Part shown: positions 25,941 through 64,000 of the stretch, in pieces | Layout of the letters: each line of letters opens with the position of its first letter | How positions within the stretch are numbered: the stretch's first letter is position 1 | From: Nocardioides panacis | GTDB lineage: Bacteria; Actinomycetota; Actinomycetes; Propionibacteriales; Nocardioidaceae | NCBI RefSeq assembly: GCF_019039255.1 | Contig: NZ_CP077062.1 | Location: 1,674,001 to 1,738,000 of the forward strand | Reading direction: 5' to 3' | DNA length: 64,000 nucleotides | Position numbers and translations under genes: made by a program | The notes under the pieces: generated by a model | What the model saw: only the letters and a program-made list of their open reading frames with translations | What the model was told of the DNA's origin: nothing | Databases searched by the model: none

Positions 25941-28900
25941 GTGTCACGCATCAGTCACCTGCCCCTTCCCTGCGGCACGGCCCCGACGAAGTCATCCGAC
26001 CATCACCGCACACGCGCGGCCGGGGCCGCGGGCGCCGACCGCGCTCGCGGCACGAGTGGCTCCGACGGCGCGGGTGGGTCCCTCGGCGGCGATGACACCG
26101 GCGGGTCCGGCGTGGACGTCGCCGACCTGCAAGCGGCACTCGAACGGGTCGTGGACGGCGAGGTCCGGTTCGATGCCGGAAGCCGCGCCGCGTACTCCAC
26201 GGACGCGTCCAACTTCCGGCAGGTGCCCATCGGTGTGGTCGTCCCGCGCACCGTGGAGACCGTTGTCGACGTGATGCGCGTCTGCCGCGACCACGCGGTG
26301 CCGGTGGTGTCCCGCGGCGGCGGCACGTCGCTCGCCGGGCAGTGCACGAACGTCGCCGTCGTCATCGATTTCTCCAAGTACTGCAACCACCTCCTCTCGG
26401 TCGACCCCGAGGCCCGCACCTGCCTGGTCGAACCCGGCATCGTCCTGGACGACCTGAACCGTCAGCTCGCGCCGCTCGGACTCCGGTACGGGCCAGAGCC
26501 GGCCACCCACATGAACTGCACGCTCGGCGGGATGATCGGGAACAACTCGTGCGGGGCGACCGCGCAACGCACCGGCAAGGTCGTCGACAACCTCGCCGGG
26601 CTCGAGGTGCTGCTCTACGACGGCACCAGGTTCACGTGCGGGCCGACCAGCGACTTGGAGTACCGGGTCATCGAGCGGCGCGGGGACCGGCGCGCGCACG
26701 TCTACCGGACGCTGCGACGGCTCCGCAAGGAGCATGGCGACCTGATCCGCGAGACCTACCCGGACATCCCGCGCCGGGTGTCCGGCTACAACCTCGACTC
26801 GCTGCTGCCCGAGCACGACTTCGACGTCGCCGGCTTCCTGGTCGGCAGCGAGGCCACCCTGGTCACCGTCCTGCGCGCCGAGCTCAAGCTCGTCCCGGTC
26901 GTCAAGGAGCGAACGCTGGTGGTCCTCGGGTTCCCCGACATCGCCGCCGCCGCGGACGCGGTCCCCGCCATCGTCGAGCACGACCCCATCGCCTTGGAGG
27001 GGGTCGACCACTACCTGATCCGGGACCAGCATCTGAAGGGCATGAACGCGTCGGCCCTCGAGGAGATGCCGCAGGGGACCGGGTTCCTGATGGTGCAGTT
27101 CGGCGGGGACACCACCGAGGAAGCCGACGCCGCCGCCCGCAAGATGCTGGCCGCGCTCGAGGACGGCCCACACGACCCGAGCGTGAAGGTGATGGACGAC
27201 CCGACCCAGGAGGACGAGCTCTGGCTGGTCCGCGAGTCCGGGCTCGGCGCGACCGCGCACGTCCCGCACCGGCGCGACACGTTCGAGGGGTGGGAGGACT
27301 CCGCCGTGCCACCCGCACGACTGGGGGACTACCTGCGCGACCTGCGCGGCTTGTACGAGGAGTTCGGGTTCGCCAGCGACACCGGCCCCAGCCTGTACGG
27401 GCACTTCGGACAGGGCTGCGTGCACACCCGCATCCCGTTCGACCTGTACTCCGCCGAGGGGGGTCGCCACCTACCGACGGTTCATGGAACGCGCCGCGGA
27501 CCTGGTGGTCGGCTACGGAGGGTCCCTGTCCGGGGAGCACGGCGACGGCCAGTCCCGTGGCGAGCTGCTGACCCGGATGTTCGGCGAGCGGGTCGTCGAG
27601 CTGTTCGGACAGGTCAAGGACCTGTTCGACCCAACCGACCGGATGAACCCCGGAAAAGTCGTCTACCCGGCCGCCCTCGACGAGCATCTCCGGCTCGGGA
27701 ACACCTGGGCCCCGAGCAACCCCCAAGACCTGTTCTTCGGCTTCCCGAACGACGGCGGGTCGTTCGCTGAGGCCGCCAACCGGTGCGTGGGAGTGGGGAA
27801 GTGCCGACAAGACAGCCACACCGCCGGGGCGGTGATGTGCCCGTCGTACCAGGTCACCCGCGACGAGGAGCATTCCACCCGCGGCCGGGCCCGGCTGCTG
27901 TTCGAGATGCTGAACGGGCACGGGGACAGCCCGGTCACCGATGGCTGGCGTTCCACCGAAGTCAGGGACGCCCTCGACCTGTGTCTGGCGTGCAAAGGCT
28001 GCAAGCACGACTGTCCCGCCTCGGTGGACATGGCCACCTACAAGGCCGAGTTCCTCGCCCACCACTACAAGGGGCGGCTCCGGCCGCGCGCGGACTACGC
28101 CACCGGTTGGGCGCCGGTGCTCGCTCAGGTCGTCGCTCGGACCCACTCCGCGGCCGTCGTGAACGCGGTCGGCCACGCCCCCGGGCTGCACTGGCTCGCG
28201 ACTCGATTGGCCGGGCTGGAGAACCGCGAGGTGCCCCTGTTCGCGTCCCAGACCCTGCAGCAGTGGTGGCAGGCACGAAACCACGACCCGGCCCGGCCGG
28301 CCGGACACCGGGGCACCGTTCTGCTGTGGCCCGACACGTTCACCAACGCGTTCGCGCCACACATCGGCCGGGCCGCCGTCGCGCTCCTCGAGGACGCCGG
28401 CTGGCAGGTGGAGATGCCCACCGAGCCGCTGTGCTGCGGCCTGACCTGGATCTCCACCGGACAGCTGTCCGTGGCGAAGAAGGTGCTCCAACGCACCATC
28501 GCCGCGCTGGCACCGCACGTGCGCGACGGCGGCTACGTCGTCGGTCTCGAACCGTCCTGCACGGCGGTGTTCCGCAGCGACGCCCCGGAGATGTTCCCCA
28601 CCGACCAGGACGTGCACCGGCTGCGTGACCACACCGTCACCCTCGCCGAACTGCTTACCGAGCACACCCCCGGGTGGACCCCGCCGCCGGTAGCAGGCCA
28701 GGCACCTGGTCCGGTCCAGGCTCTGGCACAGGTGCACTGCCATCAGCATGCGGTCCTGGGCTGGGACGCCGACGAGCAACTGTTGAAGTCAGCCGGGGTC
28801 GACGTGGAGCACCTGGAGTCCGGCTGTTGCGGACTGGCCGGGAACTTCGGGTTCACCGCCGGGCACGGCGAGGTCAGCGAGGCGTTGGCCGAGCAGGTGT

Positions 28901-29196
28901 TGTTGCCTCGGCTGCGCGATGCGGATCCGGCGACCGTCGTCCTGGCCGACGGGTTCTCCTGCCGCACCCAGATTCATGATCTGGACTCCGGAGGCCGCCA
29001 GGCGGTGCACCTGGCAGAGCTCCTCGCGACCGGTCTGCCCACGTCGCACGAGTCCAGCGCTGGTGCGCCGCTGAGGACGACCGGTGGCCCACCGGTCGCA
29101 CCGTCCCGCCTGGCCCGGGGGGTGCGCTGGGGGCTGCCGGCCTCACCGCGACCGGCACAGCAGTGCTCGCCGCGTGGACCGTGCGGGCCGCGGTGA
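25941..29196 (+). CDS. FAD-binding and Fe-S-binding dehydrogenase (D-lactate/glycolate dehydrogenase type), frameshifted
   Basis: This is a fused flavin/iron-sulfur dehydrogenase of ~1080 residues, like the Dld/GlcD-GlcF fusions that oxidise D-lactate, glycolate or 2-hydroxyglutarate and pass electrons to the membrane. The N-terminal FAD domain shows VVSRGGGTSLAGQC and GGMIGNNSCGA; the FAD-oxidase C domain ends with GGSLSGEHGDGQSRG. The Fe-S part shows CVGVGKC..GAVMCPSY and CLACKGCKHDCP. The CCG domains have EPLCCGLTW, LEPSCTAVF and SGCCGLAGNFG. A G6 run at 27458-27463 has one base too many: with five Gs the frame continues ..EGVATYRRFMERAADL. The start is uncertain: the ATG at 25941 adds a variable ~55-residue tail, and a GTG near 26112 is an alternative. 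It is the first gene of an operon with pyruvate oxidase and an enolase-superfamily enzyme. Confidence 0.85.
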
Positions 29197-31089: not shown

Positions 31090-32316
31090 CCCCCTCTGCA
31101 GGCCTGCCCACACCCGCGCGTACCCCGGTTCATCGACCCGTTGCGACGGCCCCCGAACCCACCCTGGGCAGGTCACTGCGGCGCGTACCGGCCCGAGCCG
31201 CACGACTTCACGACACGGACGTACCCGTGCGCTCGCTGACCGTCAGCGTCTACACCATCCCGACCGACGCCCCCGAGGCCGACGGGACACTTGCCTGGGA
31301 CTCGACCACCATGGTGCTGGTCGAAGCTGCGGCCGGGAACACCGTCGGCGTCGGGTGGACGTACGGGCCACCGGCCCTGGCCGACCTGGTCCGCGGCCGC
31401 CTGGCCGGGGTGGTGACCGGACGGAGCGCGCTCGACGTGACCGGCAGCAACCACGCAATGGCCGACAGCCTCCGCAACGACGGCCGACCCGGCGCCGGCG
31501 CGATGGCCCTGTCGGCCGTCGACCTGGCCCTGTGGGACCTGAAGTCACGGCTTCTCGAGCTCCCCCCTGCACCGACTCCTCGGACAGGTCCGCGCCACCG
31601 TCCCGCTCTACGGTAGTGGTGGGTTCACCACCTACACCGACCACCAGATGCGCGACCAGCTGGACGGCTGGGCAACGGCCGGCTTCACCGCGGTCAAGAT
31701 CAAGGTCGGTGAGGACCACGGCGCCCGGCTGGCACGCGACACCTCACGCGTCCGCCAGGCCCGGGCCGCGCTCGGTCCGCACATCGACCTGTTCGTCGAC
31801 GCCAACGGCGCCTACGGGGCCCAACAAGCCATCAACTGGTGGCGCAACCTACACGACTCGGGTGCTCAGGTGACCTGGTTCGAGGAACCGGTCTCCTCCG
31901 ACGACCTCGCCGGCCTGGCCCGGGTCCGGGACGCAGTCGGTGCCGACGTCACGGCCGGAGAGTACGGCTACGACCTCACCTACTTCGGACGGATGCTCGC
32001 CGCCGAAGCAGTCGACTGCCTCCAGGTCGACGTCACCCGTTGTGGCGGCATCACCGAATGGCTCCGGATCGCGGCGGTCGCCGCAAGCCGGCACCTGGAC
32101 GTGTCCGGTCACTGCGCACCGCACGCGCACGCCGCCGTCGCCGCCGCCACCCCCAACCTGCGCCACCTCGAGTGGTTCCACGACCACACCCGCATCGAGT
32201 CCCTGCTGTTCGACGGTGCCACCGAGGCCGTCAACGGGACGCTCACGCTCACCGACGCCCCGGGAAACGGCCTGACCCTGCGAAGACACCGCGCAGAACA
32301 GTTCCGAGTGTCCTGA
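31086..32316 (+). CDS. Enolase-superfamily enzyme (mandelate racemase/muconate-lactonising type), frameshifted
   Basis: This is an enzyme of ~409 residues after frame repair. The capping domain (VYTIPTDAPEADG..LVEAAAGNTVGVGWTYG) precedes a TIM barrel with the VKIKVG Lys motif, metal ligands DANGAY, WFEEPVS and TAGEYGYD, a QVDVTRCGG strand and the SGHCAPHAH motif. This places it in the mandelate racemase/D-tartrate or sugar-acid dehydratase branch. A C6 run at 31562-31567 has one base too many: with five Cs it reads ..LELPLHRLLGQVRATVPLYGSG. The GTG at 31086 overlaps the upstream stop by four bases, but the real start may be internal near 31228. It is last in the MarR-controlled operon, so the operon probably feeds hydroxy-acid or sugar-acid carbon into pyruvate and acetate. 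Confidence 0.8.
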
Positions 32317-55780: not shown

Positions 55781-57152
55781 TCAGGCAGTCGATCGGACCG
55801 GGTGGCGCCAGCACGTCTGACCTGCCTCGGGGACCCGGTTCCGGCAGGGACCCTTGGGGGTGGGCTCCCCGCAGCGATGTACAAGCACCGGGGCCACGGT
55901 GCCGTTCGTGTCGCTGGAGTCCTCGGTAGTTGCCGGACCACGGGCGTCGGGCCGTTCCAGCAGCGGGGCCCGGGTACGTGGCCCTGCCTCCGCTCCGAAC
56001 GACAGCAGCGTCAGCAGGTCGTCGGCCTGATACAACGGCGTCCTGCGGTATTTGCCCGTCGCGGGGGTGAGGACGTCGATGTTCTGCAGCTGATGGACGA
56101 GCTGCTGCGCGCGTCGCGGGGACACCTCGAGCTGTCCCGCCAGGAACGTCGTCGACACCACGGGGTTCTCGGCGACGACGTCGAGCGCACGGTGCAGCGA
56201 CGCGTCGCCACGCACGCCGTCGAGCGCCCCTCGCCACCGATCGAGCAGGGCGATGGCGGCGTCAGCGAACGTCCCCGCGGCCACGGTGGCCGACTCGACG
56301 TAGGCCAGGAACCGGCTGACGTAGTCGTTCAGCGCCGCTAGGCGGTCGTCTCCGGTGTACCGGTACTGGGTCAGTGCCTCGACGTATCCGGGCACGTCGT
56401 TTCGCAAGGCCGTGGAGAGTGGGATGACGCCGTCGTCGATGAGGCCGGCGCGCCTGAGGACGCCGTGGACCAGCGCTCGTCCGACGCGACCGTTGCCGTC
56501 CTCGAATGGGTGGATCGTCTCGAACTGCGCGTGGACGACCGCGGCCAGAACCAGCGGTAGGTCACCTGAGGTGTTCGCGTAGGTGAGCAGATCCTCCACG
56601 TAGGCGTGCACGGCGGCCCCGGGGGGTGCCGCGTAGTCGGCGTTGAGCTTGTTGGTGCCCCCCGATCCAGACCTGCTCGCGGCGATAGCCCTCCTGGTGC
56701 CACGGGAGGAGCGTCTGGTGGATGGTCCACAAGTGCTCGTGCTTCCACTGGCCGGCGCCCAGTACGTCGATCGCATCTTTCATCGCGGCGACGTTCCGCA
56801 CGATCTGGCTGGCGGCGTGCGGCGCTGCCTCCGCGTAGACCTGCGCCACCGCGACGTCTCGAGGAGTCGCACGGATGCCCTCGATCCACGACGACGAGAT
56901 CGACTCGGAGCGCAGCGCGGTCGAGTACAGCGCCGGCAGCGGGTTCGCCCGCAGACGACCGCCGAGGCGAGCAACCGCCGTCGAGACCTCCGCTGCCTGC
57001 TCCAACGTGGCTCCCGACAGCGCGTTCGACACGTCCGCGAGCAGGTCCGGGTGGTACCGCAGGTAGCTGCCGCCCTGCCGCTCGGCACGGCTCAGGCCAG
57101 CGAAGTCGGCTGCGACTTGCACCCTCTCCCAGTGAGCCACGGTAACCACCAT
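55781..57152 (-). CDS. fic: Fic family protein with C-terminal zinc-ribbon-like tail (frameshifted)
   Basis: This is a ~456-residue Fic AMP-transferase-type protein. The N-terminal region has the inhibitory helix SSWIEG ((S/T)xxxE(G/N)), so it is a class II, self-inhibited Fic. The catalytic loop HPFEDGNGRVGRAL is fully conserved. A winged-helix-like region (VSTTFLAGQLEVSPRRAQQLVHQL, then TGKYRRTPLYQ) follows. The C-terminus has CGEPTPKGPC..GQTCWRH, a Cys/His set like small zinc-ribbon tails (DUF5763-type). A C6 run at 56658-56663 (plus strand) has one extra base; five would join the halves (VWIGGTNKLNADY). The start at 57152 lies 8 bases from a perfect palindrome, which is presumably its own operator. 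Confidence 0.85.
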
Positions 57153-60191: not shown

Positions 60192-61191
60192 GTGACGCAG
60201 CTGGCCAGCTACTTCACGGAGGCGCTGAGCAACATCGAGCCGGGTGACGACGCCAGGAACGCGAAGTCCGCTCACGAGGAGGTGCGTGCGACCCTGCTGA
60301 AGTCCACGGACCTGACCGACTTGGGGATCGACCCTGTGCTGATTGGCTCCTACAAGCGGCACGTCTCGATCCGCCGGGTGAAGGACGTCGACGTCTTCGG
60401 CAGGTTGAAAGATGCCGACTCGGACCTGGCGCCCGGTGCGGCGCTCGACCTCTTCGAGAAGGCGCTCGAGGTGGATTTCGCCGGCCGCATCGAACCCCAG
60501 GCCCGATCGTTCAAGATCGACTTCCCCGACGAAGAGCTCACCGTCGACGTTGTCCCGGCCCGTCCGTCGGGCAACCACTGGGAGATTCCGAAGAAGGAAG
60601 CCCAGGACAAGAGGGCCGGCTGGCTGGCCACGAACCCGCTTCAGTTCAACGAGCTGACCACCGCGGCCAACGCCGAGTTCCTGCTGAACGACAAGGGAAT
60701 TTACGTCCCGACCGTGGAAGCTCGTGCGTCAGGTGCGCCGCAACTACCTGCGCGACGCACATCCCGGCGGCTTCTTCTTCGAGGTGATGACCTATTGGGC
60801 GTTTGTCGACGGCGCCCCGAAGGAGACCAGCCAGGCCGCATACCTGGTGTTCGCTCTCGAGCAGATCGTCGAGACACTCGTCCAGGTGGCGGAGAACGGC
60901 CTGGCCGACCCCACCTTGCCGGACAAGATCATCAGCACGCGCGCCGACGCCGCCGATCTGGAGCACGCGACGGCCCGGCTCACGGAGGCCCGCGACCTGG
61001 CCGCCGAGGCGTTGCGCGATGAGGACGACTGCGCCTCTGCGCTCAAGTGGCAGGAGCTGCTCGGCCTGACGACCGAGGACGAGGAGGTCTTTCCCCTCCC
61101 GGAGTACTGCAACCCGGACGGGTCGACCAAGAAGTCGGATGCGCTGCCGGGGGCGTTGGTCTCGCCCGCGGGGACCGGCCGCTACGCCTGA
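60192..61191 (+). CDS. CBASS CD-NTase (SMODS-type cyclic-oligonucleotide synthase), frameshifted
   Basis: This is a 332-residue (after repair) nucleotidyltransferase that makes cyclic di- or oligonucleotide signals when phage is sensed. The polymerase-beta-like core shows GSYKRHVSI (GS motif), KDVDVFGRL (first two Asp metal ligands) and ELTVDVVPARP (third Asp). The helical C-terminal domain follows (VRQVRRNYLRDA, FFFEVMTYWAFVDG, AYLVFALEQIVETL, ending GTGRYA). One extra G near 60716 (GTGGAAG for GTGAAG) breaks the frame. The GTG at 60192 is preceded by GAGGGGGACC. The short C-terminal tail may be the site conjugated by Cap2. It is followed two bases later by cap2. The clade and product cannot be told from sequence alone. 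Confidence 0.85.
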
Positions 61192-61193
61192 TC

Positions 61194-62772
61194 GTGACCT
61201 TTCAGTTGCCGGGAGACATCGCCCTGCTCCGCGCTGGCCTGCGGCAGGGTCTGGCTGGACTGGGTTTCGCCGATGACGGCGTGCTGCTGCGTGGCCCCGT
61301 GAACTGGAGCGTCCGGGACGGAGAGCCAGCGGTCGCCACCGTCGACATCGAGCTCGATGAACGTTTCCCGTTCGCTCCACCGGTCCTCCGCGTACACGAC
61401 GTTGGGGCGGATGTCCCTCTCACCTGGCACATCGAGCCCGGCGGGGCGCTGTGCCTGTGGGACCGCGCCGACTCGACGCCCGCGGATTGGAGCACTGCCC
61501 GCGCGGTCGTGGCACGGGTTCAAGGCTGGCTGGAGAAGACGGCGGCCGGATGGCCAGACGACAACGACTGCGATCTGGAGCGTTACATCCCCGGCACCCA
61601 AGACCCGGTCCTGGTGCTCTGCGATCTCGTGGAGCTCGGCGACGTCACTGGCTGCGTACAGGTGCTGCCCACCGGCCGCGGAGTGGTGCGCGTCAGCCCG
61701 GAGCAGCGCCCGGTCCCCCCCGAAGACCCGCAAGGGGCGCCGGCGACCGAGGAGCGGGAGCCTGGGGTGGGTCGCGAATGTGGGTGAGCTCGCGCAGCCG
61801 ATCGTCGGGTGGACCGACGTGGCCGCCCTTCTCGATCCAGTGGACACCATCGCGCTCCTCCGTCTGGTGCATGAACACGGTCTGCGGCACCTGCTGCTGC
61901 GCTACACGCGATCAGGTACCCCGGGAACTCTGGCCCTCGTGCTCGAGGCAGCGGGGAACGCCCCAGGAGCCCGGCAGGCAAGCCCACGGGTGCGAAGTTC
62001 GCCGACGGCCGACACCAGCGTGGCCGCGCGAAGACTTCGATCCGGCGTGGGCGCGCCTGAACTCGCGTCATTTCGAGTCGCCATCGTCGGATGCGGTGCG
62101 GTGGGGTCCGCCATGGTGGACCTGCTCTTCCGCAACGGCGTGACCCGGCAGATCCTTCTCGACCCCGACCGGCTGCGACCGGGCAACGTGATCCGGCACC
62201 TCGCGGACGACCGCCACGTGGGTCTGCACAAGGTCCACGCAACCCGCCAACGACTGGGGGAGGTCGGCCTGGTCGTCGATGACGTCGACGCCCGGGTGGA
62301 CGCCATCGGCAGCCCCGGTTCCGCGCTCCTGCTGATGGACGAGGTCGACGCAGTGGTCGATGCGACCGGCGACGAATGGACCACCGCGCTGCTCCGCTGG
62401 GCGGCAGAGTCGACCCAGACCACCGTCGTGTCCGCCGCCGTACAAAGGGAAGGTGGGATCGCCCGCGCTGATCGTTTCCCCGCGCCCGTCGGCGACTACC
62501 TTCCCTCGGTACCTCTCCGCACCGATCTTCCGGCTCCCGGGCGTGAACATGGATGCGGCGACGCCGTGTCGAACACGCCACCCTCCGCGGTCGTCGCCGC
62601 CGCCACTCTGGGGGTGGAGCTCCTGCTGGCCGGGCTCTCCGGCGTTTCGGCGACGCCGGCCTCGCTTCTGCGGGTGCTGCAACCGCAACCCGATGCGCCC
62701 TACGACCGCCTGACGATGCTCACCTCGCCGCCAGCCGCACAGGACCCTCCGGTGACGGGTGCACCTCGGTGA
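61194..62772 (+). CDS. cap2: Cap2, E2-E1 fusion of the CBASS ubiquitin-like system (frameshifted)
   Basis: This is a 526-residue (after repair) fusion. The E2-like domain (residues 1-150) has the strand order FPFAPPVLRV and the active-site Cys in IEPGGALCLWDR. The C-terminal E1-like ThiF domain has the ATP loop VAIVGCGAVGSAMV, DPDRLRPGNVIRH, the adenylation pocket ATGDEWTTALL and a catalytic Cys candidate in REHGCGDAVS. Cap2 proteins conjugate the C-terminus of the CD-NTase to targets to prime it. A C7 run at 61715-61721 has one extra base; with six Cs the E2 and E1 parts join as ..RPVPPKTRKG..GSLGWVANVG. The GTG at 61194 follows the CD-NTase stop by two bases. It is an operon with cap3 and cap4. 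Confidence 0.85.
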
Positions 62773-62781
62773 GGACCAGTC

Positions 62782-63264
62782 ATGGCTGACCGCGGAGCGG
62801 CCGGCGGCCCCTTGCGCGTCGCGATCACGGGTCCGGCCCTGAGCGAGATGCGCGACCAGGATCGGGCCGCGAATGACACCGAGATCGGTGGTCTGCTTCT
62901 CGGTTGGTGGGCCCCCGGCACGATCATCGTGCGGCACGCAATCGTGGTCCGCGACCCTCGCTCGACCGGCACGTCGTGGACGCGGCGGCCGCGGCAGTCC
63001 CGTCGTGCGTTGGCGGATGCTCTCGCGATATTCGAGCATCCATTGCTCGGCTACGTCGGGGACTGGCACTGCCACCCACAGGTCTGCGCTGCCAGCGACC
63101 GAGATCTCGCGTCGCTGCAGCGCACCTCACGGCAGTACCGCTCTCCACTCGCCTTGATCGTGTCCCTGCCCGACGGCACCTGCGACACCAGGGCCGCCCA
63201 AGACGGCATGCTGGTCCCCGTGACCACGGATGATCGACCTGTCCTCGCAGCCGGGGACGCGTGA
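62782..63264 (+). CDS. cap3: Cap3, JAB/MPN metalloprotease of the CBASS system
   Basis: This is a 160-residue JAMM-type isopeptidase that, in type II CBASS, removes the CD-NTase from its conjugates. The zinc motif is complete: the Glu in NDTEIGGLLLGW, HxHP in GDWHCHPQV, and Ser/Asp in ASDRDLASLQ. The ATG at 62782 lies 9 bases after the cap2 stop, and the cap4 start follows its stop by one base, so the genes form a tight operon. Its length is typical of Cap3. Confidence 0.85.
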   Translation: MADRGAAGGPLRVAITGPALSEMRDQDRAANDTEIGGLLLGWWAPGTIIVRHAIVVRDPRSTGTSWTRRPRQSRRALADALAIFEHPLLGYVGDWHCHPQVCAASDRDLASLQRTSRQYRSPLALIVSLPDGTCDTRAAQDGMLVPVTTDDRPVLAAGDA

Positions 63265-63265
63265 C

Positions 63266-64000
63266 ATGGCACTTCCGGCACGGGCGGCCGCGTTGCGCGG
63301 CGACGACCTCCAGCATGCTGTGGGCTGGTACTGGGCGGTCTGCGCCTACCAGGACCCGGAGATCACCTCCGTCAGCATCGAAGACCGCGACGGGGGGTCC
63401 TTTGACGACGTGGTGGTGAGGAGGGTCAGCACGGCGCATCGGCTGTTGCAGGTCAAGAACTCGAACTTCGGCGGCACGTTGATCGACGACAAGTGGCTGC
63501 TCGCCACTTCGTCGTCGTCCGAGAGGGCGCGCAGCCCGCTGCAGCACTTCTTTGACACCTGGAAGGCGTGGCGCGACTCGGGGGAGCCCTTCGACCTCGA
63601 ACTGCTGAGCACCCGCGGGTTCGACCCAGCGCACCAGATCCTCGGCGAGCACAGGGATCTCCTGACTCACCAGGTCGATGTGCAGAGAATCCTCGATGCC
63701 AGCGGCGCCAGTCGGCTGGGAAAGGCGCGGCTGCTGTGGCAGGAGCACCTCAACATCAGCGCGTTCGAGCTGGTCGCGTTCTTGTCCGCCGTTCGCTTCC
63801 GGTACGCCGGCAACGAGAACGACTGGGACGAGAAGAGCGCCCTGCGGATGCAGCTCAACGGGCTTAGACACGACCGCGAGGCGCTCACGATGGGCCGCGC
63901 CCTGGTCAGGAACTGGGTGAAGCTCGGGTCGGGCGAGCAGTCCCGCGACGAGATTAGAGCCCAGATTCACGAGAGCCGCCTTCAGGCGACCGACGCCGTC
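63266..64000 (+). CDS. cap4: Cap4-like effector, DUF4297 nuclease N-terminus (partial, runs off the window)
   Basis: The frame starts at ATG 63266 (MALPARAAALRGDDLQHAVG) and remains open to the end of the window, 245 codons. Residues ~37-70 carry the DUF4297 endonuclease motif: ITSVSIEDRDGGSFDDVVVR followed by HRLLQVKNS, i.e. Glu/Asp..Asp..QxK. The rest is helical (LIDDKWLLATSSSS, HFFDTWKAWRDSG, LVAFLSAVRFRYAG). In Cap4 effectors this nuclease is followed by a SAVED domain that binds the cyclic oligonucleotide and triggers DNA degradation; that part would lie beyond 64000. As the fourth gene of the operon it is most likely the effector. Confidence 0.75.
   Translation, partial: MALPARAAALRGDDLQHAVGWYWAVCAYQDPEITSVSIEDRDGGSFDDVVVRRVSTAHRLLQVKNSNFGGTLIDDKWLLATSSSSERARSPLQHFFDTWKAWRDSGEPFDLELLSTRGFDPAHQILGEHRDLLTHQVDVQRILDASGASRLGKARLLWQEHLNISAFELVAFLSAVRFRYAGNENDWDEKSALRMQLNGLRHDREALTMGRALVRNWVKLGSGEQSRDEIRAQIHESRLQATDAV

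What the first reader, a model, noticed from the sequence alone, without database searches (positions are those of the whole stretch)
60192..64000. Type II CBASS operon cut by the window edge
Gene order CD-NTase, Cap2 (E2-E1), Cap3 (JAB), DUF4297 nuclease with starts and stops 1-9 bases apart. The motifs GSYKRHVSI..DVDVF, GALCLW, GCGAVG, HCHP..SDRD and LQVK are all present. Two single-base indels (about 60716 and the C7 run at 61715-61721) would hide the system from automatic annotation, which would report two broken genes. The right end, including the expected SAVED sensor domain, is outside the window.
Basis: partly seen in the sequence, partly recalled or inferred. Interest (0 to 1): 0.75.

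Follow-up and report, generated by a model that had tools for sequence, protein, structure and literature searches.

The report
Ordinary type II CBASS phage-defence operon
This is a four-gene bacterial anti-phage alarm system of a known kind, and its two apparently broken genes are most likely errors in the genome assembly, so it is ordinary.

Summary
The window's chromosome is held, and reading on past the right edge gives the missing part: the last gene ends at window-frame 64735 with a strong SAVED domain (Pfam E 3.3e-28). The locus is a complete type II CBASS gene set: CD-NTase (60192-61191), Cap2 E2-E1 (61194-62772), Cap3 JAB protease (62782-63264) and a Cap4-type nuclease-SAVED effector (63266-64735). 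Seven other distinct loci carry all four genes, among them Kribbella sp. VKM Ac-2527, Virgisporangium ochraceum and Nocardioides mangrovicus. Signature residues are kept, including the C-terminal alanine of the cyclase.

Both frame breaks are in the sequence as given. The two pieces of each gene match consecutive parts of one profile, and relatives encode each gene in one frame. The same assembly also breaks conserved non-defence genes: 4 of 15 segments tested against a congener, against 0 of 13 and 0 of 13 between two congeners, although that congener shows one break too. I therefore read the breaks as assembly errors (about 0.7); a decaying operon is the main rival. No raw reads could be checked. 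New member of a known kind; low interest.

The parts
60192..61191 (+). cap1: CD-NTase (SMODS), GTG start; reading frame changes near 60716 (pieces 60192-~60715 and ~60716-61191)
   Evidence: Pfam SMODS and PADLOC PDLC00810 on both pieces; codon-usage frame change at 60715/60716
61194..62772 (+). cap2: E2-E1 (Prok-E2 + ThiF), GTG start; reading frame changes near the C7 run at 61715-61721
   Evidence: PADLOC PDLC00844 on both pieces, ThiF on the second; frame change around 61700 in the codon-usage profile, not flagged by the stricter rule
62782..63264 (+). cap3: JAB/JAMM isopeptidase, 160 aa
   Evidence: Prok-JAB above cut-off; E34, H96, H98, S105, D108 invariant in 4 of 4 aligned sequences
63266..64000 (+). 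cap4: nuclease-SAVED effector, 489 aa; continues outside the window to window-frame 64735
   Evidence: SAVED E 3.3e-28; PADLOC SAVED_PDDEXK 1.9e-86; Foldseek best matches are Cap4 structures

Best explanation
It is a type II CBASS operon with a Cap4 effector. Inferred working: on phage infection the CD-NTase makes a cyclic trinucleotide, most likely 3'3'3'-cA3; the SAVED half of Cap4 binds it; Cap4 oligomerises and its N-terminal nuclease degrades double-stranded DNA. Cap2 joins the C-terminal alanine of the CD-NTase to cell proteins to prime it, and Cap3 removes it. Shown here: gene order, domains, signature residues and relatives. Inferred from characterised members: every biochemical step. 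The two frame breaks are most likely uncorrected indels of the assembly, so the real operon is probably intact.
For: Domains and profiles; all four genes in 7 other distinct loci of 33 rows examined; cap2 free of internal stops in 8 of 8 relatives and cap1 in 4 of 4; PDLC00844 matched in a single frame over nearly its whole length in 6 of the 6 other genomes that have it, out of 393 others searched. Cyclase C terminus Ala in this locus and Ala/Gly in 10 of 13 relatives, the state required by Cap2 (PMC10097602, passages). XGSX motif IGSY in 5 of 5 aligned, nearest to SGSY/TGSY of cA3 makers rather than QGSI of cAAG makers (PMC13424991, passages); the nearest solved cyclase of the full-length Nocardioides relative is 9sa4/9sa5, E 1.7e-16. 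Assembly errors: 4 of 15 G003 segments and 2 of 21 G001 segments are broken in this genome, 0 of 13 and 0 of 13 between G001 and G003; 5 of the 6 sites (four core, cap1, cap2) lie at a G or C run of four or more; FAD-oxidase_C, an unrelated domain in the window, is also split between frames, profile 3-178 and 184-248.
Against: The reference genome G003 has a break of its own in one conserved gene, and the ab initio scan separates this genome (22 candidates in 276 kb) only modestly from G003 (5 in 100 kb), more clearly from G001 (0 in 78 kb). One of the two core stretches, L013, was chosen because it had most ab initio candidates, so the 4 of 15 is biased upward; the unselected stretch gives two sites. 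The cap1 site is not at a homopolymer. A Thermocatellispora relative (L067) also shows cap2 in three frames and no cap1, so decay of this operon does occur. Cyclic product and targets are untested.
Confidence: 0.7

Rival explanations
1. A genuine but decaying CBASS operon: the two frame breaks are real mutations, the cyclase and Cap2 are dead, and Cap4 is an orphan.
For: Breaks fall in two genes of one operon; neighbouring minus-strand genes next to it also change frame near 67882 and 68740; the Thermocatellispora relative looks decayed; Cap4 homologues were not found in 6 of 6 congeners examined, so the locus is accessory and dispensable.
Against: Both pieces of both genes stay well conserved right up to the break with active-site residues intact, and core genes of the same assembly break likewise.
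Confidence: 0.25
2. The breaks are functional: programmed frameshifting or phase variation at the C7 run switches Cap2 and so tunes CBASS.
For: A C7 run lies at the cap2 break, between the E2 and E1 halves.
Against: 8 of 8 relatives read cap2 in one frame and none has a run of six or more at that place (one, L046, has a C6 elsewhere); the cap1 break has no run; the same kind of break occurs in unrelated genes.
Confidence: 0.04

Closest known systems
Bacillus cereus type II CBASS (BcCdnD, Cap2, Cap3, Cap4; PMC13424991, passages seen)
   Same: Same four components; nearest solved cyclase to the full-length Nocardioides relative (9sa4; that 9sa4 is BcCdnD is inferred from length and timing, not stated by the call); XGSX motif with Tyr.
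   Different: Distant sequence; product and activation not tested here; two genes broken in this assembly.
Enterobacter cloacae and Acinetobacter baumannii Cap4 (7yia/7yib, 6vm6, 6wam, 6wan)
   Same: Best Foldseek matches over the whole effector (7yia 5.1e-23, 6wam 1.4e-19); SAVED part matches by sequence.
   Different: Identity about 16-20%; whole-chain TM 0.39-0.45 because the model is of modest confidence (pLDDT 72.5); ligand specificity cannot be transferred.
Four-gene CBASS of Kribbella sp. VKM Ac-2527 (L056), Virgisporangium ochraceum (L058) and Nocardioides mangrovicus (L043 = L070)
   Same: Same gene order cap1-cap2-cap3-cap4 on one strand; effector identity 44, 41 and 31%.
   Different: No frame breaks seen in cap1 or cap2 there.

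Membership tests
Type II CBASS | CD-NTase with GS...DxD nucleotidyltransferase motif | tested here: met
   SMODS 5.8e-14; GSYKRHVSIRRVKDVDVF with third Asp in LTVDVVPA; G52, S53, D65, D67, D119 invariant in 5 of 5
Type II CBASS | Cap2 with E2 and E1 domains and their cysteines | tested here: met
   PDLC00844 on both pieces; Cys in LCLW-like and GCG motifs in 5 of 5; that these are the catalytic cysteines is recalled, not tested
Type II CBASS | Cap3 JAB/JAMM isopeptidase | tested here: met
   Prok-JAB 27.8 bits over cut-off 25; E, HxH, S, D invariant in 4 of 4
Type II CBASS | Cyclase C terminus Gly or Ala for conjugation | tested here: met
   Ends ...GRYA; 10 of 13 relatives end in Ala or Gly, L045, L053 and L054 do not
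Type II CBASS | Effector with cyclic-nucleotide sensor | tested here: met
   SAVED 3.3e-28
Type II CBASS | All genes in unbroken reading frames | tested here: inconclusive
   Not so in the assembly as given; probably assembly errors
Type II CBASS | Protection against phage through a cyclic nucleotide | not testable with these tools
   -
Cap4 effector | N-terminal PD-(D/E)XK (DUF4297) nuclease fused to SAVED | tested here: met
   PADLOC SAVED_PDDEXK over residues 4-475; D46, D47, Q61, K63 invariant in 4 of 4; Foldseek to Cap4. The Pfam DUF4297 model itself gave no hit

The most novel reading that the evidence does not exclude
The C7 run in cap2 is a slippery or phase-variable switch that separates the E2 and E1 halves and sets CBASS on or off in this strain.
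Probability: 0.03. Interest if true: 0.6.

Novelty: new member of a known kind. Interest (0 to 1): 0.13.

Why it matters
It adds one actinobacterial case, probably of the family Nocardioidaceae, to a described defence type, and shows how indels in an assembly can make a complete defence operon look broken. It opens no new question by itself.

Tried and rejected
Programmed frameshift or phase variation: considered because of the C7 run; 8 of 8 relatives read cap2 in one frame without such a run there. Attachment-site repeat: the 3' end of the tRNA-Leu at 70939-71026 (window frame) has no second copy in the 96 kb examined. First scan of genome contigs with the single Cap4 protein found nothing; the second with alignment A5 gave 23 loci, of which 3 (L056, L058, L070) carry all four genes by tblastn at 1e-5, the rest lacking one or more in the stretch held. 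Ab initio frame-break scanning was kept only as weak support: its model was trained on this genome, it does not flag cap2, and G003 also gives 5 candidates in 100 kb. I first took the break seen in own-to-G003 for the mirror of a break here; one search shows that it lies in G003 itself, and also that the two L013 sites are in one gene, so the four core sites fall in three genes. Searches of the unknown minus-strand ORFs against plasmids gave no match. Paper search for CBASS with frameshift and homopolymer returned 2 papers, from their titles neither about this (listing only).

Full report
What is there. The window is bases 1674001-1738000 of a 4.90-Mb single contig, so the right edge could be extended (L002, window position = L002 position + 56000). 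The four genes lie on the plus strand at 60192-61191, 61194-62772, 62782-63264 and 63266-64735, with 2, 9 and 1 bases between them. Pfam and PADLOC place them as CD-NTase, E2-E1, JAB and nuclease-SAVED. The best PADLOC cyclase model is PDLC00810 and the best E1-E2 model PDLC00844. Only the Pfam E2 model falls short of its cut-off, and DUF4297 is not hit.

Relatives. Cap4 homologues occur in 3 of 146 other genomes of the relatives sample (G033, G007, G110) and in 0 of the 6 congeners in it; in the phylum sample, at E 1e-30, in 2 of 395 others. A PDLC00844 search of the class found 6 of 393 others, each matched in a single frame over nearly the whole profile, while this genome matches only from position 164. 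In one search I examined 33 rows; 8 rows, 7 distinct loci (L056, L058, L043 = L070, L042, L045, L046, and L053 with cap4 cut by the end of the locus), hold all four genes, with effector identities of 25 to 44%. Many of the other rows hold Cap4 without the rest in the stretch at hand, and some stretches are short.

Signature residues. CD-NTase GS, DxD and third Asp are invariant in 5 of 5. The Cys of the LCLW-like motif and of GCG in Cap2 are kept in 5 of 5. JAMM residues are invariant in 4 of 4. Cap4 D46, D47, Q61, K63 are invariant in 4 of 4. The cyclase ends in Ala; 10 of 13 relatives end in Ala or Gly. Passages of PMC10097602 state that the C-terminal residue of 1,583 cyclases from operons with Cap2 and Cap3 is Gly or Ala and that Cap2 forms a thioester with it. 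Passages of PMC13424991 describe a B. cereus type II CBASS with 3'3'3'-cA3 and Cap4, and tie SGSY/TGSY motifs to cA3 and QGSI to cAAG; here the motif is IGSY in 5 of 5, hence the cA3 prediction, which is an inference. The review PMC10419184 (passages) gives 2'3'3'-cAAA and 3'3'3'-cAAG as ligands of two other Cap4 proteins, so the ligand is not settled.

Structure. AlphaFold2 on a four-sequence alignment gave pLDDT 72.5 and pTM 0.55. The first 14 Foldseek hits in the PDB are Cap4 proteins, over nearly the whole chain, but with TM about 0.4 and large rmsd, so it supports the domain make-up and not the domain arrangement.

The frame breaks. They are real features of the assembled sequence: consecutive parts of one profile lie in two frames for both genes. 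Three tests bear on whether they are biological. First, conserved genes outside the operon: of G003 protein segments with a hit of 60% identity or more, 4 of 15 are broken in this genome, and 2 of 21 from G001, at two of the same four sites. The controls G001 to G003 and G003 to G001 gave 0 of 13 and 0 of 13; own to G001 gave 0 of 21; own to G003 gave 1 of 17, and that break lies in G003. The stretch L013, with two of the four sites, both in one GGDEF/EAL-like gene (name recalled from motifs), was chosen because it had most ab initio candidates. Second, sequence context: the four core sites and cap2 lie at G or C runs of 4, 6, 6, 6 and 7; cap1 does not. Third, other window genes: FAD-oxidase_C is split between two frames at 27457/27460 (profile 3-178, then 184-248), and a Fic gene has Fic_N in one frame and Fic in another at 56662/56664. 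Ab initio candidates number 22 in 276 kb here, 5 in 100 kb of G003, 0 in 78 kb of G001. Together these favour uncorrected indels in the assembly. They do not prove it: G003 shows that the yardstick is not free of breaks either, and no reads are at hand.

Setting. To the right of the operon a SIR2 gene on the minus strand (PADLOC PDC-S65, 5.9e-180) converges on cap4. A tRNA-Leu (gag) lies at window-frame 70939-71026. Similarity of more than 250 bases to the fetched G003 and G001 stretches runs to the right of about 70905 and is absent to its left, so the operon lies in a non-syntenic, probably acquired, segment next to a tRNA gene; where the segment ends on the left was not determined, and no repeat of the tRNA end was found.

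Verdict. A type II CBASS with Cap4, member of a known kind.

Noticed in passing
L002:8783-10957 (window frame 64783-66957, outside the window), minus strand: SIR2-like gene matching PADLOC candidate PDC-S65 (5.9e-180), convergent with cap4; the true start is probably inside the ORF.
   Followed up: partly
L002:10765-13668 (window frame 66765-69668), minus strand: Coding-like segments in changing frames without Pfam or PADLOC family at E 0.001 and without plasmid match at 1e-5; possibly unknown defence genes, frame changes near runs at 67882 and 68740.
   Followed up: partly
window frame 70905-71026: tRNA-Leu (gag) at which synteny with two congeners stops.
   Followed up: partly
window 26058-29053: FAD-linked oxidase gene split between two frames inside FAD-oxidase_C.
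   Followed up: partly
window 55886-57108, minus strand: Fic-family gene with its N-terminal and Fic domains in different frames.
   Followed up: partly
window 31209-32278: Enolase-superfamily dehydratase-like gene with its two parts in different frames.
   Followed up: partly
L067:3264-4338 (Thermocatellispora tengchongensis): A cap2 relative lying in three frames with internal stops, with cap3 and cap4 but no cap1 found: looks decayed.
   Followed up: no
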